This document shows, one piece after another, positions 41,460-58,119 of a stretch of DNA of 64,000 nt (position 1 is the first letter of the stretch; each line of letters begins with the position of its first letter). The DNA comes from an uncultured Phycisphaerales bacterium (GTDB taxonomy: Bacteria; Planctomycetota; Phycisphaerae; Sedimentisphaerales; Anaerobacaceae), in contig CAIODZ010000042.1 in the NCBI GenBank assembly GCA_903857265.1, positions 1 to 64,000 on the forward strand. The letters are read 5' to 3'. A program made the position numbers and the translations under genes. The notes beneath the pieces were generated by a model, which saw only the letters and a list, made by a program, of their open reading frames with translations, was not told the DNA's origin and searched no databases.

Positions 41460-42626
41460 GTGAACTGGTTGAGATTGATAATTGTTCAGGTTGTTCTGCT
41501 TTCGGCGGTGAGCTGTTTTGCGGCAGAGCCGAATGCGCAAAACGAGAAGGAAAAAACAATTGTTTCACATGAAACCGCGCAAAGTTGGATACAGGTTGGT
41601 ATTGCGCAGTCCAAAAAGGGCCTTTACGAGCAGGCGGAAAAGTCGTTTCTCGCGGCAAAGGAATATCAGGAATATCTGACTGCCGAAGAGCAAAAACAGC
41701 TCGAAAAACAAATCGCGGAGGCAAACCAGGCCGTTGTAGAAAGACAGCCCGTTCTTGAGCATATCAAAAAAGCACAAGAGCTTCTCAGTCAGGGTCAGCC
41801 GGTCAAGGCGAGGGCGCATTATGAAACGATTCGCAAAAGCCCCTATCTTACTGAACAGGAACGCAAACAAATTGAGCAGGAGATTAAGAACGTAGATAGT
41901 AGTGTTGACAAGCAGAGGAAGAAAATCACCGAGATTTACAATCGCAGCGTGCAGCTTTACCGTGCGGGCGATATAGAAAAAGCCAGGGAGGGCTTTGTGG
42001 AAGTTGCCAGATATGGCATGCTTGTTGTTCCTAAGGGCCAGACAGCCGAAGATTATTTGATTCAAATAGACAGCATACTTACTGAAAAACTTAAAGGTCA
42101 GCCGGCCGCAAACGCCTCACTGCCGCCTGCCGCATTGCCGTCGGTGAAGGAAAAATCGAACCCAAAGAGCGCCGGTCAGCCCGTGCCGTCTGAAACCGAG
42201 GCGACGCTTTTGAAGCCCGGAAGTGATAAAAATGCCTTCGAAAAACAGGATGATAAATCCTCGCGGGCGAATCAGGCACAGCAAGAGTCAGCAGAAGTGG
42301 CTGCGGCAGCTGAACCGCAGGCAGAGTCGTCTTCAGCCGACGAACAAAAAGTTGCGACTGAGAACGAAGCCAAAGCCGTACCCGATAAAGATGCGAGAGC
42401 TAAAATTGTGCAAACTTATACAAAAGCGGTCGTCGATGACGCCGCAACAAAAGTGGAATACTATATCGGCACTGGCGAATTCGATAGGGCTGTCGCGAAA
42501 GTTCGCGCGGCAACGGATGTTGTTAAGGAGAACCGGCCTTTAATTGGCGATGAATTGTTTACCCAGTACAGTATCCGCCTCAAACAGCTTGCCGACAATA
42601 TCATCCACGCCAAAAAGACATCGTGA
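41460..42626 (+). CDS. Secreted TPR-like protein, paralogue of the secretin N-terminus
   Basis: 388 aa from GTG 41460 (AGGGGG upstream). The signal peptide (LRLIIVQVVLLSAVSCFA) is followed by TPR-like helices (WIQVGIAQSKKGLYEQAEKS near 43-62), a second helical pair (VQLYRAGDIEKAREGF), a long disordered Ala/Glu/Ser/Lys-rich middle (about 215-310) and a C-terminal helical block (AVVDDAATKVEYYIGTGEFD). The first and last blocks match residues ~51-91 and ~161-237 of the following secretin. It may be a periplasmic pilotin- or scaffold-like partner of the secretin. No named family is recognised beyond TPR. Confidence 0.8.
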   Translation: MNWLRLIIVQVVLLSAVSCFAAEPNAQNEKEKTIVSHETAQSWIQVGIAQSKKGLYEQAEKSFLAAKEYQEYLTAEEQKQLEKQIAEANQAVVERQPVLEHIKKAQELLSQGQPVKARAHYETIRKSPYLTEQERKQIEQEIKNVDSSVDKQRKKITEIYNRSVQLYRAGDIEKAREGFVEVARYGMLVVPKGQTAEDYLIQIDSILTEKLKGQPAANASLPPAALPSVKEKSNPKSAGQPVPSETEATLLKPGSDKNAFEKQDDKSSRANQAQQESAEVAAAAEPQAESSSADEQKVATENEAKAVPDKDARAKIVQTYTKAVVDDAATKVEYYIGTGEFDRAVAKVRAATDVVKENRPLIGDELFTQYSIRLKQLADNIIHAKKTS

Positions 42627-43012
42627 CCAGCCAGGTGAGAAATCACTGTTTTTGCCGGGTTTTACAGGTTGACCATCCCTGTGCCCAAACAGTCAACAAA
42701 ACGGCAAAGCCCCCATTTTAACATATTATCTGCTTGCAAATTCTTCCTAATTCTGCTATATTTCTTGAATTAACATTACGGTAATAATGCTTGATTTTGG
42801 CATTGAAGTATGCAATAATATAGGACTTTAGACAATTAAATAGCGTTGAAGTCGTATGGTAAATGCCATAAACGATTTTTTTCTTGCAAAAAGGGGCGTT
42901 TTCGGATAAACTCAGTATCAGAGGTATAGCCTTTCCTGAAGCGGCGGGGTATACGGAAATTTTATGAAGCAGATATTCCTGTGAAAATCAGTTTTTTGGA
43001 GGAGGTTCAGCT
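42627..43012. other. Intergenic region upstream of the secretin
   Basis: This 386-bp gap contains the promoter at 42734-42762 and then about 250 bp of leader without an evident hairpin terminator or known riboswitch. GGAGGAGG sits 7 bp before the TTG start of the secretin. Confidence 0.55.
42734..42762 (+). promoter_or_regulatory. Candidate promoter for the secretin gene
   Basis: TTGCAA (42734-42739), 17 bp, TATATT (42757-42762). It implies a leader of about 245 nt before the TTG start. Confidence 0.45.
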
Positions 43013-45805
43013 TTGAACACGCAAAAATTGACAGCAAAGCGACTCATAGAAACCCTCATATTGGTCCTGTTAACATCGATTATGGTGGTGACAACGTCGT
43101 TGGCGGAAGATGCGCCGAAGACGGCTAAGGGGGACAAAGATAAAGTGGTCCGTCAGATAGTTGACAACTGGATTCAGATAGGGACCGAACAGTATAAAAG
43201 GGGGTTCTATGCAGCAGCGGAGAAATCCTTCATGCGGGCGAAGGATTACGAAGAATCCCTGACTGCCGAAGAAAGAGCCAAGCTCGATCAGAGCTTGCAG
43301 ATGGCGCATAAGGCGGCGGCAGAGCAGGCAGCCAAGCCGGGCACCGCTGGACCTTCGGTACCCCAGCCGGAAGCTAAGCCGGTTGTTGAGCAGCCGAAAG
43401 AACAAGTGGTGGTCGAGACGACGCCGGAAGTTGCGGTGGCACCCCCGTCAGCTCAGCCGGAACAGGAGCAGGGTTACATCGGCGTTATTAACAGGCGCAT
43501 AAGCGTAATTCGCAGCAGGGTAAAAGCTGTTGTCAATGATTCCGCAGCCAAAGCTGATGGGTTTATCGCTCAGGGACAGTTTGACAAGGCCGGAGAAGCC
43601 GTAGAGGTTGCCGAGAGGACCGTTTACGAAAATCAGCAGCAGCTTGGCGATTATCTTTTCAATCAATACTCCGGTCAGTTGAAGCAATTATCGGAAAGAA
43701 TAGCGGACGGGCAGAAAACGCAGGCCCAACAAAAAGAAGATGAAAAGCGAACAAAAGCCGAGAGTTCACAGAAGGAATATAGGGAGCAGATGTCGTCTGA
43801 ACGCGAAAAGCGAATCAGCGACCTGTTCCAGAATACGCGGAATTTCGAGAAGCAGAAGCGATACGAGGATGCGCTTAGCCAGATTGAAATGCTTCTTGCC
43901 ATAGACCCGCAAAACAATCAGGCGCTTATAGAAAAGCAGATGCTCGAGGATACCATCAGCTATCGCAAGCAGATAGATGTTGAAAAGGAAAAAAACGGCG
44001 AAAAATTCAAAACAATGATAAAAACAGGTGAGGCGACGATACCTTATGCCGAAGAGATGAATTATCCCAAGAACTGGCGAGATATAATCGCCAAACCGGC
44101 ACGTCAGCAGCCGGAAGAAGTAGTCGGCCAGGAGTCCGCAGACGCGGAAGTTGATAAGCAGCTTGATACGGTCGTTAATTTGTCGGAGCTTTCGATAGAC
44201 ATGCCGTTGCGTGAGGCAATAAATTTGATAAAAAATTCTGTTTCACCACCTCTTAATATAACGGTGCAGTGGCTTGATTTGTACAACAATGCCAACATTG
44301 AGCAGACGACCGCGATAAATATGGATCCGCTGACAAATGTTACTGTCCGCACTGCGTTGGACCTGTTGTTGCAGTCCGTATCAGGCGGTGTTTCCCGACT
44401 TGGTTATGTTGTCCAGAACGGTGTTGTTATTGTTGCGACCCAGCAGACATTGCCAACCAACATGCCAACCCGCGTTTATGATGTTACGGTGCTCCTGGGC
44501 CGTCCGGCGGATTATTACGTAAGTTCTTCTGCTAGCAGCACCGGCAGCAGCAGCAGCAGCAGCGGCGGCGGCGGCGGTGGCGGCGGCAGCGCCGGTAACA
44601 ACGGCGGTACTTATCAGGAAACTTTCGATCAACAAGGTACGGATACAGATATCGACAGGGCGACCCTTCTGAGCGATGCCATTCAACGGATGAATGATCT
44701 CATTACCCTTATTGAGGATAACGTTGATCGGCAGAGTTGGTACGATACAGGCGGCGGAGAGGCAACTATCACTGCTTACGAAACCAAAAAACTTATTATC
44801 CGCCAGACACTCAAGAATCATCATGATATAGAAGAATTGTTGAGGAATATGCGTAAAAACCTCGGCAACCAGGTTTCCATCGAAGCCAGATTCCTGGTAG
44901 TCGGTGAAAACTTCCTTGAGGAAATAGGCCTCGACGCCTATGGCAATTTGTTCCTCGGTAACACTTTAGGCACGTCTACGTGGAACTTGAATTCCTTCGA
45001 AATGGCTGAACCCCAGGCGACAGGCGTACCAGGCGGCTTTGACGTCACCAAGACCCAGGTTGCGTTTCCGACGGCTACTTCGGGGACCATATCGACAGGC
45101 GCTATTATGGGCTTTTTTGGCGGCAGGTTCGGGGGCGTGCTTGACGGCCTTGAAGCAAACTTCCTTATCAGGGCAACTCAGGCACACCGCGATTCCGAAT
45201 CGCTGATTGCTCCTAAAGTTACTGTGCTCAGCGGAGAATCGGCCACATTGCAGGTAAAACGCACTTTCCGCTTTGCATTACAGGGAGCATCAAGCGCCAC
45301 TGCCACCTCAAGCGCTACGAACTCCACCGGCAGCAGCACCTACACAGCGGCAGAATACGACGTACCAACAGGGCCTACTCTTAATATTACTCCGACTATC
45401 ACCCCGGATAAAAAGCATGTGTTGCTTAATGTAACTGCCGAACTGCAGGACTTCCTGTCGCTCGATAAATCAACGGTTCAGGCGCCGGTTTTAGGCACAA
45501 ATGGCCAGGTTACGGTTGTTGAATACCAGGTTTTCTTGCCTCAGACGGAACGCTCCCTGGTCAGAACCAGGGTCAGTGTTCCCGATGGCGGAACGCTGCT
45601 GCTCGGCGGGACGAAGAGATCTGCCTCAACGGAGACAGAAGTCGGCGTGCCTGTGCTCAGCAAGATTCCTCTTCTGGGAAGGATATTTACAAATCGCAGC
45701 AAGGTTGCTGACCAGCAAGTCCTTTTGATTCTCGTTAAGCCGACAATCATTCTTCAGGATGAGGCCGATGCGGAGGCGGTTGCGGCTATGGAGGACCAGC
45801 ATTAG
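43013..45805 (+). CDS. Type II/III secretion-type secretin with TPR-like N-terminus
   Basis: 930 aa from TTG 43013, justified by GGAGGAGG 7 bp upstream. Signal peptide to about 31, helical blocks shared with the preceding gene, another TPR-like pair (NFEKQKRYEDALSQIEMLLA), secretin N-type domains (LSIDMPLREAINLIKNSV; LIIRQTLKNHHDIEELLRNM), and the secretin pore (SLIAPKVTVLSGESATLQV near 728 to VPVLSKIPLLGRIF and VLLILVKPTII near 912). A Ser/Gly tract at about 504-531 is encoded by a trinucleotide run. Secretins form outer membrane channels. No ATPase, pseudopilin or inner-membrane gene is nearby. Confidence 0.9.
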   Translation: MNTQKLTAKRLIETLILVLLTSIMVVTTSLAEDAPKTAKGDKDKVVRQIVDNWIQIGTEQYKRGFYAAAEKSFMRAKDYEESLTAEERAKLDQSLQMAHKAAAEQAAKPGTAGPSVPQPEAKPVVEQPKEQVVVETTPEVAVAPPSAQPEQEQGYIGVINRRISVIRSRVKAVVNDSAAKADGFIAQGQFDKAGEAVEVAERTVYENQQQLGDYLFNQYSGQLKQLSERIADGQKTQAQQKEDEKRTKAESSQKEYREQMSSEREKRISDLFQNTRNFEKQKRYEDALSQIEMLLAIDPQNNQALIEKQMLEDTISYRKQIDVEKEKNGEKFKTMIKTGEATIPYAEEMNYPKNWRDIIAKPARQQPEEVVGQESADAEVDKQLDTVVNLSELSIDMPLREAINLIKNSVSPPLNITVQWLDLYNNANIEQTTAINMDPLTNVTVRTALDLLLQSVSGGVSRLGYVVQNGVVIVATQQTLPTNMPTRVYDVTVLLGRPADYYVSSSASSTGSSSSSSGGGGGGGGSAGNNGGTYQETFDQQGTDTDIDRATLLSDAIQRMNDLITLIEDNVDRQSWYDTGGGEATITAYETKKLIIRQTLKNHHDIEELLRNMRKNLGNQVSIEARFLVVGENFLEEIGLDAYGNLFLGNTLGTSTWNLNSFEMAEPQATGVPGGFDVTKTQVAFPTATSGTISTGAIMGFFGGRFGGVLDGLEANFLIRATQAHRDSESLIAPKVTVLSGESATLQVKRTFRFALQGASSATATSSATNSTGSSTYTAAEYDVPTGPTLNITPTITPDKKHVLLNVTAELQDFLSLDKSTVQAPVLGTNGQVTVVEYQVFLPQTERSLVRTRVSVPDGGTLLLGGTKRSASTETEVGVPVLSKIPLLGRIFTNRSKVADQQVLLILVKPTIILQDEADAEAVAAMEDQH
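44521..44605 (+). repeat. Trinucleotide microsatellite coding for a Ser/Gly linker
   Basis: Runs of AGC and GGC triplets encode a Ser tract followed by a Gly tract inside the secretin. Slippage would change linker length without shifting the frame. Confidence 0.85.
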
Positions 45806-46001
45806 TAGGGGGTCTATCAAAAAAACTGTCCACATACGCAGAAAAAGTGTAACGAATTACCGGGAATGTGGACTTTAATAATGGCTGGACCTGGTGGGCA
45901 GCAAGGAAAATCAGTAATAAGCTGCTATGCTATGGGGGTTCAGCTATAAAAGGTTTAATCCAGGAGCAATAACACGAGATATGGATTATGTGAGGATGGT
46001 T

Positions 46002-49000
46002 ATGAAAAGTAAGCTTGTTTTCTGTGTGTCGCTGCTTATGCTGATTCAGGCAGTGGCTTCTGCGCAAACTATTCCAGTTTCTCCTTCTTCGAGAACGTAT
46101 CCCAACATACAGCGAGGCATTGATGCTGCCCACCCCGATGATATTGTCGAAGTTGATCAGGGGGTATATACCGGTCCTGGCAATGTAAATCTCGATTTCG
46201 GTGGCAAAAGAATTACAGTCAGGAGCAAACATTTTAATCCTAATGACCCGTGCTGCTGGACTTTCGTTTCTGCAACAATAATCGACTGCTGTGGTGTTGG
46301 TTACCTTAACAGTTTTGCCGCCGGCGATGGCGCGAACGCGAACAGGGCTTTTTGGTTTCACCACAACGAGAGTACCGACAGCCAGGTAATCGGCTTTACC
46401 ATCAGGAACGGTTATGCGCGAGGCCCAAAAGCCGCTGACGCCCCGACCGGATTTGATAGTGGTCGTTGGCGGCATGTTACTGGTACGATGATTGACCTCC
46501 CGTACCCGTGGGAAACCTCTCCGGCTCATGGAGCACTCCCATCAGGAACTGACCCATGCACTTTACCGCCCGCTGCGCTTGACGGCAACGACGTCAACGG
46601 CAACGGATACGGCGGCGGAATTTTGTGCCAGAGTGGCGCCTCTCCAACGATATCGTATTGTGTTTTTGAAAACTGCACTGTTACGGGCGCTCTCGGCGGC
46701 AAAGGTGGGACTGGCTTGTCGGGCAAATGGAGTTATTATACCTGGGCGGACTTCAACTGGGCCGACGGTAATACTTTTCATATGTTATTAGCTAATGCCA
46801 CTACGAAAGATAGTGATAATGGCCAAGGCGGCGGAAGAGGTGGTAGGGGTTCGGGCAACGGGTATGGCGGCGCGATTGCTATACGTGGCGGCGGCGTCCC
46901 CGAGATTGATAACTGTCGGTTTATAAACAATTCAGCCCGGGGAGGTCAGGGCGGCGACGGCGGAAAAGGCGGAAACTGTACTCTTGTTGGTGGGTATTAT
47001 ACCGGCGGTTTGGAAGGCGGCGGCGGCAACGCCGGCGTCAGTGACGGCAACGGCATAGGCGGAGCAATTTATGGCGATAGCGGTTGTGGGCCCGCTTTTT
47101 ACAATTGTCTATTCGAGAACAATGTTGCCAAAACAGGCCCGCGAGGTCAGGCCGGCGGACGCGGTTTTGGAAACGTATATATCCTATCTGACGGTATTAC
47201 TCGAGTGTCAAGCGGCATATCGAGTGAAGTGCTCACCAGCCAATATCCTGATATCGCCGGCGGCGCAGCGTATTTTGAGAATTCCTCCAATCCATCTTTT
47301 ACTGACTGCAATTTTATCAACAACAAGGCCTATGTGGCGTTTCCTTACGATCCTTTAATCTACTATTCAACTATTGCCGGTTATCCTTATTACCTAAAAG
47401 GCGCTGCAGAAGACATCCTGGGCTATACCATAGGCGGGGCCATATATTTCGGTAATAACTGCCAACAACAAGGCACAGATCCTCTTATTAACACATGCGA
47501 CTTCATAAACAATGGCGGCGGCGCATTGTATTTCGGATCGAGTTGCACCCTTAGCATCGGTAACACTTCTGCCGTGAACAGAGGGCAGCCCGGACGCAAA
47601 AACCTGTTTCAGAGTAATAAAGCACCTGATGATGTGATAGTAGATCCACTGTACTTTGTGTCTTATACCGTGTTGTCCTCGGGCAGCGGCGGCGCGATTT
47701 ATGTGAACCCGAACTGCTCTATAGGCATCAGTAACTCTATTTTTAACAAAAACACGGCAAAAACAAATGGCGGCGCTATTGAAAGTCAAAGCAACTTAAC
47801 TATTTCGGATTGCGCTTTTTCAGACAACATCGCCCAGGGAAGCGGAGATTTCACGGGTTTCGGCGGTGCGGCGGACGTTTATTCTTATTCGGGAACTAAT
47901 CTGGCAATAACCGCTACCAATTGCAGCTTCATAAGCAATAAAAGCATCTGGGGAGGCGCACTATCCACTGAAGTATTCCATGGCAGTTTTAATAATTGCA
48001 TTTTCACCGATAATACAGCCCAGACAGGAGGCGCACTTGACCTTTCAATGGGCCAGAGTACGGTTACGATTGCCGCAAGCGTATTCAAAGATAACGTCGC
48101 GACCAGCGGGGATGGCGGCGGCATTGATTGTTTTTACACCAGCGCGGATATTAATAACTGCGAATTTTTCGACAACTCCGCTGATGGAACAACTGCTTAC
48201 GGCGGCGGTATTGATATTTACGGAGCCGCGGGGGCGGGTCACACAATCAGGAATTCTTTGTTTGTGGACAATTCGTCGAAATACAACGGCGGAGCCGTTG
48301 CCTGCGAAGGGGTCTCTGTATCACCTCTGATACAAAACTGCACCTTCAGCCAAAACACTGCGAACCAGTTCGGCGGAAGTATTTATGCGGATTGGGATGC
48401 AACGCCGCAGATTAAGGACTGCATAGTTCAAAAGAGCAATAATTACGCGATTTACAAAGAGAACGCCGGCGGAAGCGAAAGCTACTGTCTGTTCTACAAT
48501 AATCCTGACGGAAATTTAAGTGGTATTCCCGCCGGTTCCGGTAATTTGACGGGCGACCCCCTGTTTGTAACGGGCACCCTGGGCGATTATTACCTCAGTC
48601 AAGCTCCAGATCAGAATGTCAACAGCCCCGCGGTGGATAAAGGAGACGTTGATGCTTCTGCCCTTGGTCTTAATACCAAAACTACCGCTACTAATGATGC
48701 CGGTGACAGCGGTCTGGTTGACATGGGTTATCATTTCAGCAGGGCCGTTGATATGAACCAATTTCGTTTGACAATCAGTGTTGTTGGCGGAATCGGGACT
48801 ATTTCGGTTTTGCCGGCGCCTTTGCCGGACGGGAACTACTATGCGGGAACAGTTGTGACAGTTACGGCGACACCGCAGACCAACTGGATTATCAAACAAT
48901 GGACCGGAACAGATAATGACTCCGAAGTTGCCGCGACACAAAAAATTGTTATGAATTCGAACAGGGCAGTTACTGTTGAGTTCAAAATACCGACATACCT

Positions 49001-52000
49001 TTATGTGCCCTCAATCTTATACGCTAACATAAGTGCCGCTATGGCTGACGCCAACGACGGCGATATCATTGTTGTGTCTTCGGGCATTTATTACGGGCCT
49101 CAACTCCAATTCACCAAGTCCGTGGAAGTCAGGTCCGCACAACCCGAAAACCCGGATTATGTTGCCCAGACAATCATCGACTTTAACCAGATAGGCGGGT
49201 CACACGCCGGGCCGATTATTTTCTTCCCGCAGAGTGCAAACTCCGGGTGTATTTTGAATGGCTTTACCATCAGGGACTCGCATTGGTACACTGACACGGG
49301 AGACAATGGCGCGCAGCCAGGCGAGAACGGCGGTGACGGCTCCGGCGGCGAGGGCGGCGCTATCTGGATTGGTCCGGAGGCAGGCCCTGTCATTAAAAAT
49401 TGCGTTATCAGGGATAATTCAGTTCTCGGCGGCTTTGGCGGCAACGGCGCTAATGCCGACCGGCAGCATAACGCCGGTCGCGGCGGCTGGGGCGGCTGGG
49501 CCAGGGGCGGTGCCATTTATTGCAGTGAACACAGTTATCCTCAATTCATTAATTGCCAGATACTAAACAATCGGGTGGTTGGCGGCTTCGGAGGAAACGG
49601 CGGCGCCATAGCAAACCCCGGTGGTAATGCAAATTATGGCGGCAACTATAGCAGGGCAGAGTGGTTTGACTACGACCCCCGTGAGGATTACGCCGATTGG
49701 GTTCCGGGTGATTTGTGGGAGAAATGGACCGAGCAGGCACCCTATATTCCTTATACGGGTATGTTGTTCAAGGGAAGGAATAATTACGGCTGGATTGATG
49801 ATTACCAGGTGTTCCATTGGGGTTATATCGGCGACTACCGATGGTACAGCGGCTATGGCGGCGGCGTGTATGTTAATAAGGGCAGCAACGTAACGTTTAC
49901 CAATTGCGTAATCAGCAATAACCTTGCTCAGGGCGGGTTTAGCGGTCTGGGTGGAAGCGAGCCCGGCGCAGGGCCTACTCGAGTGGAGCCGTATCCCACA
50001 AAGTATGAGATACCGGCCTTTGGCGGCGGTGTATATGTAGCTGCCACGTCGAATGTTGTATTCAATGAATGTGTAATAGGTAATAATACGGCGTCTAACC
50101 CGACTTTTGACCATAGGACTGCATTAGGAAATGATGGCACTCTTTCTGGTTATATTCCGGTAAATTATGACCCGCTCAATCACTTCAGCCTTGACTCATA
50201 TCTTGGTCACGGCGGCGGCGTCTGTGCCGAAGACACGGCGAAAGTTACGTTTGTCGATTGCAATTTCACCGGTAACAACGCCTCTGTCGGCGGCGGATTG
50301 TTTGGCTCAAATGTCTCACTGATGCTGAGCGACTGCGAATTTGTGTCAAACCGTGCCTACCAGGGCGGCGGTATGTTCGGTCAAAATGGTTCGATATCGA
50401 TAAACAAAAGTATATTCAGCAGTAATACGTGTCCTGATGACGCCAATGACCCCAACGTTCTCGGCCAGGGCGGCGCTTTGAATTTCTTGTCGGTCAATGC
50501 CAATATCGTTGACACAAGCATTATCGGTAACAGCGCTGAGGAGATAGGCGGAGGCCTTTATTTGGGCGGTTCAGGTTCTACGGTGATGCATAACTGTATG
50601 GTCAGGGAAAATAGCGCGTCCCAGATGGGCGGCGCGGTTGCAACCACAGATTCTGCACAGTTGAAGGTTGCCAACTGCACGATTGTCAATAATAACTCTA
50701 ATCTGGGCGGAGGCCTTTTTGGCGATGAAGGCGGCTATATAAATGTTATAAACAGTATTATCTGGGGAAATTTTGGCAACGCAGGATCGCAACTGGCGCT
50801 AAGCATGGGGACGTTACAACCCTCTGACGCGGATGTAAGTTATAGCGATGTAGGGCCCCCTGCTGCTGATATTAACAAGGTTGTGCCTGCTCCAGCCCTG
50901 ACGGTTGTCGCTACGAATGATGCGAATGTCCTGGCAAATACCTTACTTGGCTCAGGCATCAATTTGGTTGGCAATCCTATATACACAGGAGCGATTGCCG
51001 CTTCGGGAACGTTCAAGGGCGGGCTTGCGGCCGGCATCGGAATCGAATCCGGTATTATTTTGACCACCGGTCTTGCGACTAATGCGCTGCCGCCAAATAA
51101 TAACGATGGAAAATCAACAGAGAATGGTACGCCCGGAGATCCGGACCTCAATGCCCTATTGCAGGCAAGAGGAGGTTCTTCGGCGGGATTAACCACCAAT
51201 GATGCGGCAGTTCTTGAATTTACCTTCAATTCCCAGGGTGGTAACCTGTTCTTTAACTTTGTATTTGCCTCCGAGGAGTACAACGAGTGGGTAAATTCAC
51301 AGTTTAACGACGTATTCGGGTTTTTCCTCGATAACAGGAATATCGCCCTGATTCCGGGGACTACAACGCCGGTAGCGATTAATACCGTCAACGGCGGAAA
51401 CCCGTTAGGAACAGACGCCACTAATCCGCAATATTTCCACAACAACAGTACCATCGATGGCGGCCCATTCTATTCTATTCAGTATGATGGGTTTACCAAT
51501 GTATTTACCGCTCACGCGTTGCATCTGAGCAGCGGTCCTCATACAATTAAGCTGGCAATCGCTGACACGAGTGACCAGCGACTTGACTCGGCGGTATTTA
51601 TCCAGGCGGGTTCTTTCTCTGACAAGGCGTCTTCCGACCCGATTAGCGTCGCTAAAGGTTGCACGATTGTCGGGTGGGATCCTAATGTTCGAGATTCGAA
51701 TAAGTGGGACCCGAACTTTGTTATATACCATAACATAAACACTGACCCGTGCTTTATTGACAATTACTATCTTAGCCAGATTGCCGCGGGGCAGGCCATC
51801 GACAGTCCCTGCGTGAATACCGGCAGCGCGGATGTCAATAGTCCTGATATTAATCTTGGGGGTTATTCCACCAGGACCGACAGCGGGGCCGATGTTGGTA
51901 TAGTAGATATGGGGTATCACTACTCGGCGTTTACGCCTCCGCAGTATTATCTCAATTTTACTGCTGTTAACGGCAGCGGTATTGGGCCGAATGATATCTC

Positions 52001-55000
52001 ACCGGGCAGCGGCTATTTCAGCTGGTATAAGAACATTCCGTTGCACGTAGCCGCTACTGTGCCCCCAGGCAGCGAGGTTCTCTGGACCGGCACCGATAAT
52101 AACGATGTCAACGGGCTCGATAACTCCGTGATTATGAACGCAAACAGGACGGTTACGGTTGCATTTGTAAGTAATTCCTGTCACCTGACGGTTCAGGTTG
52201 TGGGTAATCACGGCGGCACTGTTGCAATAACACCATCTTCGCCAGACGGCAATTATCCTCGTAAGACGGTCGTTACACTTACAGCGACACCTGACACTGG
52301 CTATCGAGTTGACAGTTGGCAGGGCACGAATAATGATGGTTCCTTTGCCCGAACCAACACCGTGACTATGAATGGAGACAAAATCGTCTATGTTACGTTC
52401 AGTGTGCCGCAGACACTGACTGTTCCAAGCCCATACTCTTCGATTCAGTCGGCTATCGAGGCGGCTCGGCCAGGTGACAGAGTAAGTGTCGCCAGCGGCG
52501 TATATCAAGGCAGACAGATTACAATCAACAGGGAAATCACTATAGTAAGCACAAAGCCTGACGACCCCTGCACGGTCGCAGCTACTGTTATCAGCTCCAG
52601 CGGATACGCCAACAGAGCGGTTGTTTTTGAAGCCGGCGCCACTGAGAACACCGTTCTCGATGGTTTCACTATCACCGGCGGCACATATTTTGAGCTTGCC
52701 TCGTCTGCTCCTGCGTCGACGGCGGGTCTGAATGGTATTGATGGCGACCCAATCAGTGGCGGCGCCGTATCTATCAATTCCGGCGCAAGCCCGACAATCA
52801 GGAATTGCGTCATCAGAGACACTACTATAACAGGTGGTAACGCTTCTAACGCCAACGCTGCCGATGCCACTCATACAGCAGGTCGAGGCGGCTGGGCCGG
52901 CGGCAGTTATGGCGGCGGCGTATTCATTGATGCCGGGGCGAACCCGACGTTTATCAATTGCACGGTTACCAACTGTTCGGCCATAGGAGGTAATGCCGGT
53001 AATGGCGGCGCCTCTTCTGGCACGTATCAAGGTACCGATTACCAGGATGCTAATCACGGTGGTTCGTGGAGCAACGCCGATACTTTCCCATATTGGTCGC
53101 TTATCGGCTCCAATGGCCGGCCGTATATATCTGACTATCAATTCTACACCGGACTTGGCGGCGGTGTGTTCTGCAGCGCTAACAGCAGTGCGACATTTAT
53201 CGACTGCAACATCACAAATAACACTGCGTCAGGCGGTATGAGCGGTATCGGCGGCGACAGACCCTGGACAAGACCTGACCCAGTTACCGCTTACAGAATA
53301 CCAAGCTATGGCGGCGGCGTGTTCTGCGCAAATGATGTCAAGGTTCATTTCATCGGCTGCAATATAACAGGCAACGTATCGCCCAAACCCGATGCTACCT
53401 ATCACATCGACCCATATCTGGGCCACGGCGGCGGTATTGCCTTTGTGAACGACGATCAATCAGATATCCAGCTCGAGAATTGCACTATAAGCGGCAACAC
53501 CTCGGCGGTTGGCGGCGGCGTGTTCTGGATTGGCGGGTCGCCGGCAGTGCTGAATTGCAACATAATCAATAACGTCGCATACATTGGCGGCGGTATCTAC
53601 GGGGCGGGAAGCTCCGGACAAATCAAAGGATGCTCGTTGCGAAGCAACTTTGCGGGCGTATCGACAGGCGACGTTGATGTGGTCGCGGGCCAGGGTGGAG
53701 GTATATTCGGCTCGTCGATAAACGCCGACATTATTGATTGTGTACTGATCAATAACATTTCTTCGGCGTCGGGCGCTGGAATACATATTTACGGGCCCGC
53801 GAGCACCGAAACGATTATCAGGAACTGTCTGTTGACAGATAATCAGTCAGGTAGCGACGGCGCAGGCATCTCCATCAACTGGGGCGCCATTACCGTTGTC
53901 GAGAACTGCACACTATACAATAACCAGGTCACGGGTCTGTATGGCGTTTCCGGCGACACGGGGTTTGGCGGCGGATTGTATTGCTCCTACGACGCAAGCA
54001 CCGACGTCAATAACAGTATTTTCTGGGACAACAACAGTTTATTCGGTCATGAGATTTACATAGGGCCGGACACTAACCATGAGCCGCGATGCGGCAGCGT
54101 TAGCGTTACATTCAGCGATATTCAAGGCGGACAGACAGGTGTATATGTAGGCAACATAGGTTACAGTTGTCCATTTATCTGGGGGGCGGGTAACATAAAC
54201 ATTGACCCGCAGTTTGTGAACGCCGTGGGCAACGAGTTCCACCTTAAGAATAGGGCCGCCGGACAAGAAGTTAACAGCCCCTGCATTAACGCGGGCGGAA
54301 ATCCTGCACGATTGCACGGGTTGAACAAGTATAGCACCTCTACTCTTGGGACGCCCGACATGGGAGTTGTGGATCTTGGTTACCATTACCTGATAGCGGA
54401 CTATTGCAGACGATGGGACGTGTTTGTCGATAATACGGTTAATTTCAGGGACCTGGCAATTGTCGCAAAGTCCTGGGTTGGCGAGGTTGGCAGTGAAACC
54501 TCTGGTTATAACGTAACAGACCTGGCAGATTTTACCGACTGCTGGCTGGCGGAACTGTCAACAGAGGAACTGCCAACGGATGTGACCCCACCGGTGCCGG
54601 ATCCTATGACATGGTTAATCGCGCCTCGCGTATTAAACGCCAGCTCGGTTGAGATGACAGCCAATACTGCATATGACGCCAGCGGGACGGTTTATTACCA
54701 GTTTGAAGACGTAAACGGCACTCCGACCGCCTGGCAGGTTGACCCCCACTATGTAGCTACGGGCCTCAGTCCAACAGGTGAGTATTGTTTCAGGGTCAGG
54801 GCGCGAGACGAATTTAATAACGTTACCGCCTGGTCCGATTACAACGATCAGACAGGTGTTAGCTGTGTAAATGATATCGGCGGCGCTATTACGCCGGGCG
54901 ACTTTACTGCGCCGTCGCCGGCCCCGAATATGATAGTTTTGCCGAACCCGTCAGCTACTCCCGATAACAACACCACCAGCGAACAGTTCCAGTTTCCAGG

Positions 55001-55373
55001 AGAGCTTGATTACTGGCATAAGATTGTGGTGGATGTGACCGGTATAACTGATAATGTCACCCCGGCAGGGGAGCTTGTAATTCGCTTCATCTGCGATAGC
55101 GATTCTGGCTTCAACAGCGATCACGTGATTCCTGTGACATACCGTCCGATTCGCATAGGTCACCCGATTTCTATTGGGGCGAGGATTCCAGAGGGTGTTG
55201 GTGTTCAGGAAGGCAGTTACCGGCTGACGTGGAACGGAGCCAACCAGATTGTCTATGACGTGTTTGTTAATTCGTATGGCGGCGCAGTCGGTAAAAAGTT
55301 ACACTGGCATGTGTGCGTTTACGATGCTGCCGGAAACTCAGTGTGCTCGCCGACATATTCAATTCATAACTAA
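46002..55373 (+). CDS. Giant secreted right-handed beta-helix protein (3123 aa)
   Basis: Start ATG 46002 (GAGG 6 bp upstream) gives signal peptide MKSKLVFCVSLLMLIQAVAS. Three long parallel beta-helix regions, rich in GGG/GGA turns and NC-type ladders: about 25-915, 1000-1620 and 2137-2795. Each opens with a similar module (YPNIQRGIDAAHPDDIVEV; NISAAMADANDGDIIVVSS; YSSIQSAIEAARPGDRVSV). They are separated by InlB B-like repeats (near 920, 1980 and 2060) and a choice-of-anchor L domain (about 1626-1880, FVFASEEYNEW). Near 2800-2852 is a dockerin-like segment (FRDLAIVAKSW), then an FN3-like part and a unique C-terminus. Probable surface adhesin or polysaccharide-binding scaffold. Follows the secretin by 196 bp. 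Confidence 0.88.
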   Translation: MKSKLVFCVSLLMLIQAVASAQTIPVSPSSRTYPNIQRGIDAAHPDDIVEVDQGVYTGPGNVNLDFGGKRITVRSKHFNPNDPCCWTFVSATIIDCCGVGYLNSFAAGDGANANRAFWFHHNESTDSQVIGFTIRNGYARGPKAADAPTGFDSGRWRHVTGTMIDLPYPWETSPAHGALPSGTDPCTLPPAALDGNDVNGNGYGGGILCQSGASPTISYCVFENCTVTGALGGKGGTGLSGKWSYYTWADFNWADGNTFHMLLANATTKDSDNGQGGGRGGRGSGNGYGGAIAIRGGGVPEIDNCRFINNSARGGQGGDGGKGGNCTLVGGYYTGGLEGGGGNAGVSDGNGIGGAIYGDSGCGPAFYNCLFENNVAKTGPRGQAGGRGFGNVYILSDGITRVSSGISSEVLTSQYPDIAGGAAYFENSSNPSFTDCNFINNKAYVAFPYDPLIYYSTIAGYPYYLKGAAEDILGYTIGGAIYFGNNCQQQGTDPLINTCDFINNGGGALYFGSSCTLSIGNTSAVNRGQPGRKNLFQSNKAPDDVIVDPLYFVSYTVLSSGSGGAIYVNPNCSIGISNSIFNKNTAKTNGGAIESQSNLTISDCAFSDNIAQGSGDFTGFGGAADVYSYSGTNLAITATNCSFISNKSIWGGALSTEVFHGSFNNCIFTDNTAQTGGALDLSMGQSTVTIAASVFKDNVATSGDGGGIDCFYTSADINNCEFFDNSADGTTAYGGGIDIYGAAGAGHTIRNSLFVDNSSKYNGGAVACEGVSVSPLIQNCTFSQNTANQFGGSIYADWDATPQIKDCIVQKSNNYAIYKENAGGSESYCLFYNNPDGNLSGIPAGSGNLTGDPLFVTGTLGDYYLSQAPDQNVNSPAVDKGDVDASALGLNTKTTATNDAGDSGLVDMGYHFSRAVDMNQFRLTISVVGGIGTISVLPAPLPDGNYYAGTVVTVTATPQTNWIIKQWTGTDNDSEVAATQKIVMNSNRAVTVEFKIPTYLYVPSILYANISAAMADANDGDIIVVSSGIYYGPQLQFTKSVEVRSAQPENPDYVAQTIIDFNQIGGSHAGPIIFFPQSANSGCILNGFTIRDSHWYTDTGDNGAQPGENGGDGSGGEGGAIWIGPEAGPVIKNCVIRDNSVLGGFGGNGANADRQHNAGRGGWGGWARGGAIYCSEHSYPQFINCQILNNRVVGGFGGNGGAIANPGGNANYGGNYSRAEWFDYDPREDYADWVPGDLWEKWTEQAPYIPYTGMLFKGRNNYGWIDDYQVFHWGYIGDYRWYSGYGGGVYVNKGSNVTFTNCVISNNLAQGGFSGLGGSEPGAGPTRVEPYPTKYEIPAFGGGVYVAATSNVVFNECVIGNNTASNPTFDHRTALGNDGTLSGYIPVNYDPLNHFSLDSYLGHGGGVCAEDTAKVTFVDCNFTGNNASVGGGLFGSNVSLMLSDCEFVSNRAYQGGGMFGQNGSISINKSIFSSNTCPDDANDPNVLGQGGALNFLSVNANIVDTSIIGNSAEEIGGGLYLGGSGSTVMHNCMVRENSASQMGGAVATTDSAQLKVANCTIVNNNSNLGGGLFGDEGGYINVINSIIWGNFGNAGSQLALSMGTLQPSDADVSYSDVGPPAADINKVVPAPALTVVATNDANVLANTLLGSGINLVGNPIYTGAIAASGTFKGGLAAGIGIESGIILTTGLATNALPPNNNDGKSTENGTPGDPDLNALLQARGGSSAGLTTNDAAVLEFTFNSQGGNLFFNFVFASEEYNEWVNSQFNDVFGFFLDNRNIALIPGTTTPVAINTVNGGNPLGTDATNPQYFHNNSTIDGGPFYSIQYDGFTNVFTAHALHLSSGPHTIKLAIADTSDQRLDSAVFIQAGSFSDKASSDPISVAKGCTIVGWDPNVRDSNKWDPNFVIYHNINTDPCFIDNYYLSQIAAGQAIDSPCVNTGSADVNSPDINLGGYSTRTDSGADVGIVDMGYHYSAFTPPQYYLNFTAVNGSGIGPNDISPGSGYFSWYKNIPLHVAATVPPGSEVLWTGTDNNDVNGLDNSVIMNANRTVTVAFVSNSCHLTVQVVGNHGGTVAITPSSPDGNYPRKTVVTLTATPDTGYRVDSWQGTNNDGSFARTNTVTMNGDKIVYVTFSVPQTLTVPSPYSSIQSAIEAARPGDRVSVASGVYQGRQITINREITIVSTKPDDPCTVAATVISSSGYANRAVVFEAGATENTVLDGFTITGGTYFELASSAPASTAGLNGIDGDPISGGAVSINSGASPTIRNCVIRDTTITGGNASNANAADATHTAGRGGWAGGSYGGGVFIDAGANPTFINCTVTNCSAIGGNAGNGGASSGTYQGTDYQDANHGGSWSNADTFPYWSLIGSNGRPYISDYQFYTGLGGGVFCSANSSATFIDCNITNNTASGGMSGIGGDRPWTRPDPVTAYRIPSYGGGVFCANDVKVHFIGCNITGNVSPKPDATYHIDPYLGHGGGIAFVNDDQSDIQLENCTISGNTSAVGGGVFWIGGSPAVLNCNIINNVAYIGGGIYGAGSSGQIKGCSLRSNFAGVSTGDVDVVAGQGGGIFGSSINADIIDCVLINNISSASGAGIHIYGPASTETIIRNCLLTDNQSGSDGAGISINWGAITVVENCTLYNNQVTGLYGVSGDTGFGGGLYCSYDASTDVNNSIFWDNNSLFGHEIYIGPDTNHEPRCGSVSVTFSDIQGGQTGVYVGNIGYSCPFIWGAGNINIDPQFVNAVGNEFHLKNRAAGQEVNSPCINAGGNPARLHGLNKYSTSTLGTPDMGVVDLGYHYLIADYCRRWDVFVDNTVNFRDLAIVAKSWVGEVGSETSGYNVTDLADFTDCWLAELSTEELPTDVTPPVPDPMTWLIAPRVLNASSVEMTANTAYDASGTVYYQFEDVNGTPTAWQVDPHYVATGLSPTGEYCFRVRARDEFNNVTAWSDYNDQTGVSCVNDIGGAITPGDFTAPSPAPNMIVLPNPSATPDNNTTSEQFQFPGELDYWHKIVVDVTGITDNVTPAGELVIRFICDSDSGFNSDHVIPVTYRPIRIGHPISIGARIPEGVGVQEGSYRLTWNGANQIVYDVFVNSYGGAVGKKLHWHVCVYDAAGNSVCSPTYSIHN

Positions 55374-55432: not shown

Positions 55433-56767
55433 TTATTTTGCGTAGTGCAGGTCTTTTATGTGCTGGTAGCCGAAGTGAGCAAGCAGGTGGTCGAGCAGCA
55501 CAATAGCGGTATAATTTTCCGCAACGGGCCAGATTCTGGCGGTGATTGTCGGGTCACGGCGGGTTATAGCGGCTAATTGCTTGTTTTCGAGGGTGTACTT
55601 GTCGATGGTGTGCTGCGGCTTTGCTATTGTGGGGGTGGGTTTGACTGCGAGACGGACGACTATCGGCTGACCCGTTGCCAAACCGCCGGTGATGCCGCCC
55701 GCGTTGTTAGAATCGAAAACCACTTTGCCGTTTTTGGCCTGCATCTGGTCGTTGTCCTGGAAGCCCGTCATATCTTTTACCGCCATACCTGCGCCGACCT
55801 CGACTGCCTTGACTGCGCCGATACCGAGCATCCTGCCAAGTTCGGCGTCGAGCTTGTAGAAAACCGGTTCGCCAAGTCCTGTTGGCACGCCCAGGGCGAC
55901 AACTTCCACCAGACCGCCCGCTGAGTCGCCGGCCGCGGAGATTTTATTGCAGGCGTCGGTCATTGCCTGTGCGGCGTCAACGTCGGGGCAGTTGACGATA
56001 TGGTGAACGCCGTATTTGTCTTTGACTTGTTTGGCGGTGATTTTCGGCGTTTTGTCGCGTATGGAGTCGATTTCCTTCTCGATTTGTGCGAAGATGGCTG
56101 CTTTTTCGAGAAAGCGCATATTCATATTGACCCGGCCTTTGACGTAAATTTCCTGGTAGAAGGGGTCGAGGTCGCATCGCATCTTTTTGTAATTTTCGGT
56201 TTGTTGAAACGCCTTATTGTGGTCGATATCGGGGCATCGGACGCCCGCGATTTCCTTAACATAGGCGAAGACGCTTATACCGCATTTTTTGAGGACTTTT
56301 TTTGCCACATAACCGGCGGCGACGATTGTTGAGGTGTATCGTCCGCTGAATATTCCCGCGCCGATTGAGTCGTCATCTGGGCCGTATTTGACGAATGACG
56401 CCCAGGAGGCGTGGCCGGGGCGAGGCGTGCGGTTGGTGTCCTGATATTGTTTGACGTGGACAAAGTGCCGGTCGAGGTTCGGTATCAGGATAGTCAAAGG
56501 CGTGCCATTGGTGTGGTTTTTGTTGCCCGCGTTTTCAATTGTGTCTTCAGCGTTTAACCCCGTGTAGATTATTGGTAAATCCGGCTCTTTGCGGGGGCTT
56601 GATAGCTCATCAGCGCCTGGCTTTCGCAGGAGTAAATCGCCGTAGATTTCCTGCTCTGTCAACGGCATTGCAGGCGGATGGCCTTGCAAGACAGCGGTGA
56701 GGCCTTCCTGATATGACCCGCCCGCGACCGTTACCTGAAACATTCTTCCGATATGGCAGCCAATCAT
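55433..56767 (-). CDS. aroC: Divergent chorismate synthase
   Basis: 444 aa from ATG 56767 with AAAGGAG 6 bp upstream. It would convert EPSP to chorismate with reduced flavin. The second family signature is kept (GIFSGRYTSTIVAAGYV), RPGHAS carries the second active His, and RRDPTITARIWPV matches the C-terminal signature. The first signature is altered: IGCHIG instead of the usual GESHG. At about 444 residues it is longer than typical bacterial AroC (about 360-390). It follows aroA, which supports the role in aromatic amino acid synthesis. Confidence 0.85.
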   Translation of the reverse strand: MIGCHIGRMFQVTVAGGSYQEGLTAVLQGHPPAMPLTEQEIYGDLLLRKPGADELSSPRKEPDLPIIYTGLNAEDTIENAGNKNHTNGTPLTILIPNLDRHFVHVKQYQDTNRTPRPGHASWASFVKYGPDDDSIGAGIFSGRYTSTIVAAGYVAKKVLKKCGISVFAYVKEIAGVRCPDIDHNKAFQQTENYKKMRCDLDPFYQEIYVKGRVNMNMRFLEKAAIFAQIEKEIDSIRDKTPKITAKQVKDKYGVHHIVNCPDVDAAQAMTDACNKISAAGDSAGGLVEVVALGVPTGLGEPVFYKLDAELGRMLGIGAVKAVEVGAGMAVKDMTGFQDNDQMQAKNGKVVFDSNNAGGITGGLATGQPIVVRLAVKPTPTIAKPQHTIDKYTLENKQLAAITRRDPTITARIWPVAENYTAIVLLDHLLAHFGYQHIKDLHYAK

Positions 56768-56781
56768 ATTTTTCTCCTTTA

Positions 56782-56840
56782 GCCCGTGAGATAACCAACT
56801 CACGGACTTGTCTGTTATTCCTGGATATTATCTCATGGGC
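56782..56840 (-). repeat. CCCATGAGAT hairpin element between aroA and aroC
   Basis: On the minus strand GCCCATGAGATAA and TTATCTCACGGGC (56840-56828 with 56794-56782) pair over 13 bp with one G-T wobble. An inner pair CGTGAG/CTCACG (56785-56790 with 56799-56804) would compete for the same bases. The long stem overlaps the aroA stop and ends a few bases before the aroC ribosome-binding site. Arms match the 55-bp element at 17338 and 18175; the loop differs. Confidence 0.75.
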
Positions 56841-58119
56841 TGGACATTAATTTTATATTTGCGCCCAGGTTCTGCATCAGTTTAACATATTCCGGGAAAG
56901 TTACGCTCATTGCCTCGGCGGTTCCGATTGTGCATTGGTCTTTCATTGCCATCGCGGCAATCGACAGCGCCATTACAATGCGGTGGTCGCCTCGACCATC
57001 GAGAATTGCCGGTTTTGGGTTACTGTGTTTGATTATGAGGCCATCAGGCAATTCTTCGGTATCGGCGCCGATTTTTTTGAGTTCTTCAGCCATACATTTA
57101 ATACGGTCGGTTTCTTTTGCTCGTGCCTGCGGGACGTTTACGAGACGAGTTTGTCCTTCGGCGAATGCGCCGACGACCGCCATAGCAGGCAGGGCGTCGG
57201 GCGTGGCGTTCATATCGATTTCGATGCCTTTAAGCTGTGATTGTCTGACCGTTATCGAATCTTTGCCAATCGATATGTTGGCACCCATTGCTTTTAGATA
57301 CTCGACGACGGCTTTGTCGGGCTGGCTGTCTGAAAAGTCGAGACCTTTGAGCGTTACGCCATCACCGATAAGGGCTGCTGCGCACAAAAAGAACGTTGCG
57401 CTGGAGAAATCCGCGGGCACGGCTGCATCGAAGGATTTGTATTGCTGGCCGCCCCTGATTTTGAAATTCAACAGGCCATCGTTATCGTATTTAATCGATT
57501 GCTTATCGAGCCAGTCGAGCGTCATCTGGACGTATCCCGGTTCATTGAGCAGGGTAACGTTAATATCGGTATCTTTTTCAGCAAGGGGTGTGCACATAAG
57601 CAGCGAGGTGAGATACTGGCTGCTGAAGGCGGCGATTGACGTTTTGCCGCCGATTAGCTTACCCGTTACGGTTGCGGGTGCTTTGCCGTTATTTTTCAGG
57701 CAGGCGCATTTTGCTCCCAGTTCATTTAGTGAGTCAATCAGAGGCCCGATGGGTCGCGACTGAATTTGTTCGTCGCCTGTGAAATGCGTTGTTTGACCTG
57801 CGGGCGCAAGGGCAGCGGAACCAAGAGCGATGCGCAGCGTTGTTCCTGAGTTGCCTACGTCTATGATTTCTTTTGGGGCGAGGACTTGTCCTGCGATGCC
57901 GGTAACCTTCCAGCAATCGTTATTTGAGGCGTCTATTTTTGCGCCGAGTGAGCGGTAGCAGGATACTGATGAAAGGGTATCGCCCGAGGCGAGCGGATTG
58001 CAGATTGAGCTTTCGCCTTTGGCAAGCGAGGCGATTGCCACGGCGCGAATCGTGTGTGATTTCGAGCCGGGAATGGCGACTGTGCCCTTCAACCGGGATT
58101 TTCCTGTGATAAGCTTCAT
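56833..58119 (-). CDS. aroA: 3-phosphoshikimate 1-carboxyvinyltransferase (EPSP synthase)
   Basis: 428 aa. The N-terminal PGSKSHTIRAVAIASLAKGES holds the phosphate/shikimate-binding Lys, Ser and Arg; DVGNSGTTLRIALG is the canonical NxGT loop; DYSS-type residues occur in VPADFSSATFFL; RAKETDRI and GDHRIVMALSI complete the active site. Enzyme of the shikimate pathway, cytoplasmic. aroC follows on the same strand after 65 bp. Confidence 0.96.
   Translation of the reverse strand: MKLITGKSRLKGTVAIPGSKSHTIRAVAIASLAKGESSICNPLASGDTLSSVSCYRSLGAKIDASNNDCWKVTGIAGQVLAPKEIIDVGNSGTTLRIALGSAALAPAGQTTHFTGDEQIQSRPIGPLIDSLNELGAKCACLKNNGKAPATVTGKLIGGKTSIAAFSSQYLTSLLMCTPLAEKDTDINVTLLNEPGYVQMTLDWLDKQSIKYDNDGLLNFKIRGGQQYKSFDAAVPADFSSATFFLCAAALIGDGVTLKGLDFSDSQPDKAVVEYLKAMGANISIGKDSITVRQSQLKGIEIDMNATPDALPAMAVVGAFAEGQTRLVNVPQARAKETDRIKCMAEELKKIGADTEELPDGLIIKHSNPKPAILDGRGDHRIVMALSIAAMAMKDQCTIGTAEAMSVTFPEYVKLMQNLGANIKLMSSP

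What the first reader, a model, noticed from the sequence alone, without database searches (positions are those of the whole stretch)
41460..55373. Orphan secretin, TPR paralogue and giant beta-helix protein as a possible surface-display locus
The 388-aa protein and the secretin share two homologous blocks (residues 43-83 and 312-388 with 51-91 and 161-237), so they may assemble together through them. The next gene encodes a 3123-aa secreted beta-helix protein. No ATPase, pseudopilin or platform gene is nearby. The three genes could be a minimal outer membrane export system with a dedicated cargo.
Basis: inference. Interest (0 to 1): 0.55.

Follow-up and report, generated by a model that had tools for sequence, protein, structure and literature searches.

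The report
Pilus-type secretin beside giant surface protein
In this planctomycete relative, an outer-membrane pore that probably belongs to a pilus-like machine built from genes elsewhere in the genome is kept, across a whole bacterial family, next to a gene for a giant surface protein, which makes that protein a good candidate passenger but not a proven one.

Summary
The three genes are real and described correctly. The 388-aa protein is a stand-alone copy of the secretin's N-terminal region (43% and 39% identical blocks). The secretin is not orphan at genome level. In other classes of the phylum its homologues often lie in a cluster with a large PilM, a PilO-like and a one-TM protein (37 of 71 compared genomes outside the order within 10 kb). 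The window's genome has that PilM-PilO-one-TM set on contig C28, where no secretin was found. The closest described counterpart is Akkermansia's Amuc_1098-1102 pilus-like cluster. A self-sufficient minimal exporter is therefore unlikely; the secretin is probably the outer ring of a dispersed pilus-like machine. The beta-helix link is real and old: such a gene directly follows the secretin in 44 of 44 evaluable genomes of the family and 5 of 5 of a second, but 1 of 24 of five other families. Neighbouring tsaB and aroC are conserved too, so gene order alone does not prove cargo. The TPR gene was seen in 10 of 31 judged family genomes.

The parts
41460..42626 (+). 388-aa exported helical (TPR-like) protein; stand-alone paralogue of the secretin's N-terminal region
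   Evidence: (TPR_2 28.9 bits for the whole protein, cut-off 27; no single stretch passes on its own); AlphaFold2 model all helical, pLDDT 68.8
41586..41708 (+). first shared block (residues 43-83)
   Evidence: BLASTP E 7e-14
42393..42623 (+). second shared block (residues 312-388)
   Evidence: BLASTP E 2e-14
43013..45805 (+). 930-aa TPR-type secretin, probable outer-membrane ring of a pilus-like machine
43163..43285 (+). secretin copy of first shared block (residues 51-91)
43493..43723 (+). secretin copy of second shared block (residues 161-237)
44534..44595 (+). triplet tandem repeats coding a Ser/Gly loop; the loop is Gly- or Gly/Met-rich in many relatives, and a number of their contigs end there
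45179..45751 (+). Pfam Secretin domain (residues 723-913)
45927..55373 (+). giant secreted beta-helix protein (3148-aa ORF; signal peptide likely from 46002, by eye)
50931..51617 (+). choice-of-anchor L domain
   Evidence: NF038133 241 bits
54576..55370 (+). two C-terminal domains, Fn3-like by my reading, of a kind found at the C-termini of beta-helix relatives in both families
55433..56803 (-). aroC, convergent conserved neighbour
56833..58119 (-). aroA, next neighbour, also conserved in many relatives

Best explanation
The secretin is the outer-membrane ring of a dispersed pilus-like (PilM-PilN/O-PilQ type) envelope machine of the PVC bacteria, in the manner of Akkermansia Amuc_1098-1102. 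Its inner-membrane alignment complex is encoded elsewhere in the same genome (PilM 765 aa, PilO-like 409 aa and one-TM 691-aa genes on contig C28). The 388-aa protein arose by duplication of the secretin's N-terminal helical region and probably sits in the periplasm against that region, as an accessory ring or assembly factor. The giant beta-helix protein is probably expressed with the secretin and most likely reaches or is held at the cell surface through this machine; it has a likely signal peptide, and no autotransporter barrel was found. Shown: the homologies, gene orders and their conservation.
For: Secretin domain E 2.7e-29. A profile of 28 orthologues matches secretin structures: best a phage virion-export secretin (7ofh, E 1.5e-19), then PilQ (3jc8, 3.5e-18; others) and GspD. 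In other classes the homologue lies behind a large PilM, a PilO-like and a one-TM gene, within 10 kb of the large PilM in 37 of 71 typed genomes outside the order. The own genome has the same three genes on C28; its PilM passes the generic pilM cut-off (147.5 bits, cut-off 133) and scores more with the Amuc_1101 model (239.5 bits). The large PilM is in 135 of 148 order genomes at E<=1e-30, own genome included. Akkermansia's secretin has N-terminal TPRs, is in the outer membrane and is encoded in the cluster Amuc_1098-1102. A beta-helix gene directly follows the secretin in 44 of 44 and 5 of 5 evaluable genomes of two families that are not sisters on the secretin tree, where the trait needs 2 changes. 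A relative's secretin N-terminus matches the TPR protein over 389 residues.
Against: Scores miss the Amuc equivalog cut-offs (secretin 81.4 of 750 bits; PilM 239.5 of 650), and MshL (96.1 bits) beats Amuc_1098 for the secretin. Co-occurrence in the phylum is loose: PilM matches at E<=1e-10 in 232 of 246 genomes (other PilMs included), the secretin at E<=1e-20 in 134 of 246, and seven genomes with a secretin match have no PilM match (G181, G192, G212, G220, G313, G350, G360). 13 of 148 order genomes show no PilM match at E<=1e-30, among them G098 on one contig, which has secretin and beta-helix. Of the 71 typed genomes, 28 have the two on different contigs and 6 farther apart on one contig. No call shows an interaction. 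The PilO-like and one-TM proteins reach no Pfam or NCBIfam cut-off and no related solved structure. tsaB and aroC are conserved neighbours too, so synteny is a weak argument for cargo. 23 of 24 evaluable genomes of other families have the secretin without the beta-helix gene directly behind it. The genome's T2SS-type cluster (C55) could also export the beta-helix protein. The promoter/terminator scan found no more sites than shuffles and says nothing on co-transcription. The secretin model failed (pLDDT 32.4).
Confidence: 0.6

Rival explanations
1. One reading: the three genes are a self-sufficient minimal exporter, the secretin with its TPR helper passing the beta-helix protein without an inner-membrane machine.
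For: No T2SSE or T2SSF match on the contig; pair conserved and co-directional.
Against: The secretin stands without a beta-helix gene directly behind it in 23 of 24 evaluable genomes of five other families and often lies beside PilM/PilO in other classes. The own genome has the PilM/PilO set on a contig without a secretin match. No TPR gene was seen directly upstream in 21 of 31 judged family genomes.
Confidence: 0.08
2. The beta-helix gene is only a stable neighbour: the protein leaves the cell through the genome's T2SS-type cluster (C55) and has no tie to the secretin.
For: tsaB and aroC are conserved neighbours as well. C55 holds GspE and GspF domains and a secretin, with weak, below-cut-off T2SSK and T2SSL matches. 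Beta-helix proteins are common: 25 matches in the genome, 4 of them in this protein. The C-terminal domain also occurs twice in a protein on another contig.
Against: Among the widely conserved neighbours it alone is on the same strand with a short gap (-16 to 355 nt at the beta-helix-followed loci), kept in 49 of 49 evaluable genomes of two families that are not sisters on the secretin tree.
Confidence: 0.35
3. The secretin belongs to the C16 or C11:66-80 kb pseudopilin cluster as a classical T2SS/T4P, and the C28 PilM set is unrelated.
For: No secretin match lies on C16, and the nearest on C11 is about 30 kb from the 66-80 kb cluster.
Against: In the stretches read from other classes the homologous secretin lies with the PilM set; no PilB or PilC relative was labelled beside it there, and secretin and PilM are within 10 kb in 37 of 71 typed genomes.
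Confidence: 0.15

Closest known systems
Akkermansia muciniphila Amuc_1098-Amuc_1102 pilus-like cluster (PilQ = Amuc_1098; Amuc_1101 called FtsA-like in the 2017 paper, PilM-like by NCBIfam)
   Same: Secretin with an N-terminal TPR region and a C-terminal secretin domain (907 aa there, 930 aa here); partner PilM scores with the Amuc_1101 model; [quoted passage not shown] PMC5332112: passages).
   Different: Here the secretin gene is apart from the PilM set, has a stand-alone copy of its N-terminus in front and a giant beta-helix gene behind; scores are below the Amuc equivalog cut-offs.
Type IV pilus secretins PilQ / MshL, T2SS GspD and filamentous-phage export secretin
   Same: The secretin domain aligns with their structures; NCBIfam MshL 96.1 bits, GspD 82.4, PilQ 77.3.
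   Different: All NCBIfam scores are below the family cut-offs; TPR-like N-terminal region; no motor genes nearby.
Planctopirus limnophila PilQ-like genes Plim_0794, Plim_3284, Plim_3688
   Same: Several PilQ-like secretins in a planctomycete, each deleted singly without loss of viability (PMC11958385, passages).
   Different: Which of them, if any, is the orthologue was not tested here.
Chlamydial Pmp / POMP-repeat beta-helix proteins
   Same: POMP repeats and beta-helix.
   Different: No autotransporter barrel among Pfam matches at E<=0.1.

Membership tests
Amuc_1098-type TPR-secretin pilus system | C-terminal secretin domain | tested here: met
   PF00263 E 2.7e-29, residues 723-913
Amuc_1098-type TPR-secretin pilus system | N-terminal TPR region | tested here: inconclusive
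   Pfam TPR matches in the secretin are below cut-off (14.7 and 20.5 bits); the homologous region in the 388-aa paralogue reaches TPR_2 28.9 bits, cut-off 27, and models as helix pairs
Amuc_1098-type TPR-secretin pilus system | NF042912 equivalog score (750 bits) | tested here: not met
   81.4 bits
Amuc_1098-type TPR-secretin pilus system | large PilM-like partner gene in the genome | tested here: met
   G000:C28, 1.3e-96 with a class-level PilM as query; pilM cut-off passed (147.5, cut-off 133); Amuc_1101 model 239.5 bits, below its equivalog cut-off 650
Amuc_1098-type TPR-secretin pilus system | partner genes adjacent to the secretin | tested here: not met
   different contigs here; within 10 kb in 37 of 71 typed genomes outside the order and 0 of 5 inside it
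Amuc_1098-type TPR-secretin pilus system | forms pili-like structures | not testable with these tools
   needs microscopy
Type II secretion system | GspD equivalog score (351 bits) | tested here: not met
   82.4 bits
Type II secretion system | GspE and GspF in the locus | tested here: not met
   no T2SSE or T2SSF match on C42
Autotransporter / Pmp (type V) | C-terminal translocating beta-barrel | tested here: not met
   no such Pfam family at E<=0.1 in the beta-helix protein
Secretin plus beta-helix gene pair | conserved co-directional adjacency | tested here: met
   44 of 44 and 5 of 5 evaluable genomes in two families; 1 of 24 in five others

The most novel reading that the evidence does not exclude
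A pilus-like PilM-PilO-secretin machine of the PVC bacteria has become, in two lineages of this order, a dedicated surface-display system for a giant beta-helix protein co-transcribed with its outer ring, with a duplicated secretin N-terminus as a loose accessory ring: a pilus machine turned into an exporter of giant adhesins or proteases.
Probability: 0.3. Interest if true: 0.65.

Novelty: new variant of a known kind. Interest (0 to 1): 0.42.

Why it matters
It ties an apparently orphan planctomycete secretin to an inner-membrane partner set that can be named gene by gene, and connects it with the Akkermansia Amuc_1098-1102 proteins, whose machine is described but little understood. It also gives a testable candidate route for how these bacteria bring giant proteins to their surface.

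Tried and rejected
Minimal exporter without an inner-membrane machine: dropped as the leading model after the PilM/PilO set was found. Lipoprotein/pilotin reading of the TPR protein: the window copy fits a loose lipobox by eye (pattern recalled), relatives' copies mostly do not. A general sorting signal at the C-terminus of the beta-helix protein: the profile finds only one other protein in the genome. AlphaFold2 of the secretin with a two-row alignment failed (pLDDT 32.4) and was not used. The fold search with the TPR model gave no match at E<=0.001; most of the best are TPR proteins. PDB profile searches with the PilO-like and one-TM proteins gave nothing related. The number of TPR duplications is not resolved: the tree needs 5 label changes, starred branches force only 1. 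Promoter/terminator scan: no excess over shuffles. Literature: no paper on a secretin/beta-helix pair in Planctomycetota was seen in the listings; these cover open-access text only. Opened: PMC4960237 (passages, section 18), PMC5332112, PMC11131199, PMC11958385 and PMC12057145 (passages).

Limits of the counts. Genomes for searches were chosen by me from the lists, favouring complete or contig-internal matches, and one search took genomes whose secretin C-half stood alone. One search covers 80 stretches; its beta-helix queries include proteins from 15 of those same stretches, all first picked by similarity to the window's protein. Not judged there: G102 and G127 (f1), G097 and G107 (f7). In one search the TPR count looks only at the ORF directly upstream; G053 and G137 could not be judged. 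In one search the trait was scored by family (f1 and f4 present), and G026 as absent because aroA lies between, although one search prints BH for it; the deep forks joining f1 with f7 and f4 with f2/f6 have SH-aLRT 84 and 86 only. L155 and L156 were fetched but not read. Labels given by eye or recall, not by a call: PilT, pilins and pseudopilins without a Pfam match, tsaB, GroEL, BamA/Skp/Lpx, GH10, dockerin-like, Fn3-like (one weak Pfam match in a relative), PilO-like, one-TM.
Full report
Observation. The middle one carries a Pfam Secretin domain at residues 723-913 (E 2.7e-29). The 388-aa protein and the secretin share two blocks (32/75 and 32/83 identical, E 2e-14 and 7e-14; 1000 shuffles reach at most 53 and 49 against scores of 155 and 124). 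The third ORF is 3148 aa (3123 aa from the ATG at 46002, which begins a likely signal peptide) and holds beta-helix, POMP, InlB-type and choice-of-anchor L domains. An ABC transporter and a GH130 gene lie upstream; aroC and aroA lie downstream on the other strand.

What the genome holds. The window is part of a 2.8 Mb, 70-contig genome (94% complete). The two named relatives found are Phycisphaerales MAGs labelled 'fen'. Six Secretin-domain matches occur: the window's; a 494-aa protein in a type-IV-pilus-type cluster with T2SSE, T2SSF and PilM_2 domains (C11); one in a T2SS-type cluster at a contig end (C55), and a similar one at the end of C26; a 1142-aa one on C33; and a short 205-aa protein on the window's contig at 70.5 kb. 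Further pilus-type clusters are at C11:66-80 kb and on C16; no secretin match lies on C16, and the nearest on C11 is about 30 kb away. None of the T2SSE or T2SSF matches lies on the window's contig.

Spread of the secretin. A match at E<=0.001 occurs in 148 of 148 genomes of the order, own genome included, but 15 of these are weaker than 1e-35 and may be other secretins, leaving 133 of 148. In a phylum sample 134 of 246 genomes match at E<=1e-20. In the 60 stretches the usual order is tsaB (divergent; label by eye), optional TPR gene, secretin, then either a giant beta-helix gene and aroC, or aroC directly. In the window's own genus tsaB is not the neighbour; an ABC transporter, a GH130 or other genes stand there. 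A TPR gene directly upstream was seen in 10 of 31 judged genomes of the window's family (33 fetched) and 0 of 26 of other families.

The beta-helix link. A check that does not depend on ORF calling, on 80 stretches, gives by genome: window's family 44 of 44 evaluable with a beta-helix gene directly after the secretin (2 more not evaluable); f4 5 of 5; f2, f3, f5 and f6 together 0 of 7; f7 1 of 17 evaluable, that one with aroA in between. In five f7 genomes a beta-helix gene lies 3.5-8.2 kb further on the same strand. The secretin tree follows the families; f1 joins f7 and f4 joins f2 and f6 (SH-aLRT 84 and 86), and the trait needs two changes (quick tree). That could be two gains, or an ancestral arrangement lost elsewhere; the similar C-terminal make-up of f1 and f4 proteins (dockerin-like stretch, then Fn3-like domains, by eye) favours one old family. 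Domain content varies: one relative carries a subtilase domain. Since tsaB and aroC are also conserved neighbours, adjacency is not proof of function; what sets the beta-helix gene apart is same strand and short gap (-16 to 355 nt). Co-transcription is inferred; the consensus scan is uninformative.

The partner machine. In other classes of the phylum the homologous secretin lies behind a large PilM, a PilO-like and a one-TM gene on the same strand (L135-L138, L142, L144; gene order, with PilM partly or wholly placed by the coordinates in L135, L137, L138 and L144). In family f9 of the window's class the PilM is 3.5-4.4 kb from the secretin. Of the genome pairs typed from the listings, 37 of 71 outside the order have secretin and large PilM within 10 kb, 6 lie farther apart on one contig, 28 on different contigs; inside the order 0 of 5 are near. 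Co-occurrence is not tight: PilM matches at E<=1e-10 in 232 of 246 genomes, other PilMs included, and seven genomes have a secretin match without a PilM match. A search of the window's genome with the f9 PilM finds C28:37666-39270 at 1.3e-96. The stretch reads PilM 765 aa, PilO-like 409 aa, one-TM 691 aa; no secretin match lies on C28. This PilM scores 239.5 bits with the Amuc_1101 model (cut-off 650) and 147.5 with pilM (cut-off 133). The large PilM occurs in 135 of 148 order genomes at E<=1e-30. The PilO-like and one-TM labels rest on position, size, a hydrophobic N-terminal stretch seen by eye and alignment with their counterparts at 15-26% identity, not on a family match.

The TPR protein. 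It aligns with the N-terminus of relatives' secretins over nearly its whole length (31% over 389 alignment columns in L067). A tree of both groups puts the window's copy in a supported clade of five TPR proteins but does not settle the number of duplications. The model is all helical, three long-helix/short-helix pairs and a C-terminal helical part, with a low-confidence middle (pLDDT 68.8). A role as accessory ring or assembly factor is inference.

Reading. The secretin is most likely the outer ring of a dispersed PVC pilus-like machine of which Akkermansia's Amuc_1098-1102 is the described case: there the secretin has 907 residues, an N-terminal part with three TPRs and a secretin domain, and was localised to the outer membrane (PMC4960237, passages and section 18; PMC5332112, passages). 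By the NCBIfam cut-offs the window's secretin and the C28 PilM are not equivalogs of the Akkermansia proteins, so this is filed as a related variant, not a member. The beta-helix protein is a candidate client.

Noticed in passing
L135, L137, L138, L144, L136 (other classes of the phylum): PilM-PilO-secretin clusters are followed by ExbD-type genes in L135, L137, L138 and L144 (ExbB-type in the first three), TPR genes (Pfam in L136, L137) and a second related secretin in L136, L137, L138 and L144. A pilus alignment set in one cluster with a proton-channel motor looks unusual.
   Followed up: partly
window 44534-44595 and the same place in relatives: Triplet tandem repeats code a Ser/Gly loop in the secretin; in many relatives the loop is long and Gly- or Gly/Met-rich, and contigs end there, splitting the gene.
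   Followed up: partly
L028 3986-10955 (G000:C33): A second secretin on a contig without T2SSE or T2SSF matches: 1142 aa with repeats in front, behind a 569-aa protein with no Pfam match (chaperone-like by eye) and a 157-aa small exported protein.
   Followed up: no
L026 6301-6918 (contig C42, about 6 kb past the window): 205-aa exported protein matching positions 4-121 of the 169-position secretin model (31.6 bits), in a stretch whose genes look by eye like BamA, Skp, LpxD, LpxC and LpxA.
   Followed up: no
L029 13696-15117 and L030 minus strand from 1: Two similar GspD-like secretins at two contig ends, perhaps paralogues.
   Followed up: no
L102 6390-13979: A beta-helix relative next to the secretin carries a subtilase domain (E 3.4e-41), so at least one member may be a protease.
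   Followed up: no
L154 4346-7456 (G000:C70): A 1036-aa protein (GH10-like by eye) holds two copies of the domain found at the C-terminus of the window's beta-helix protein.
   Followed up: partly
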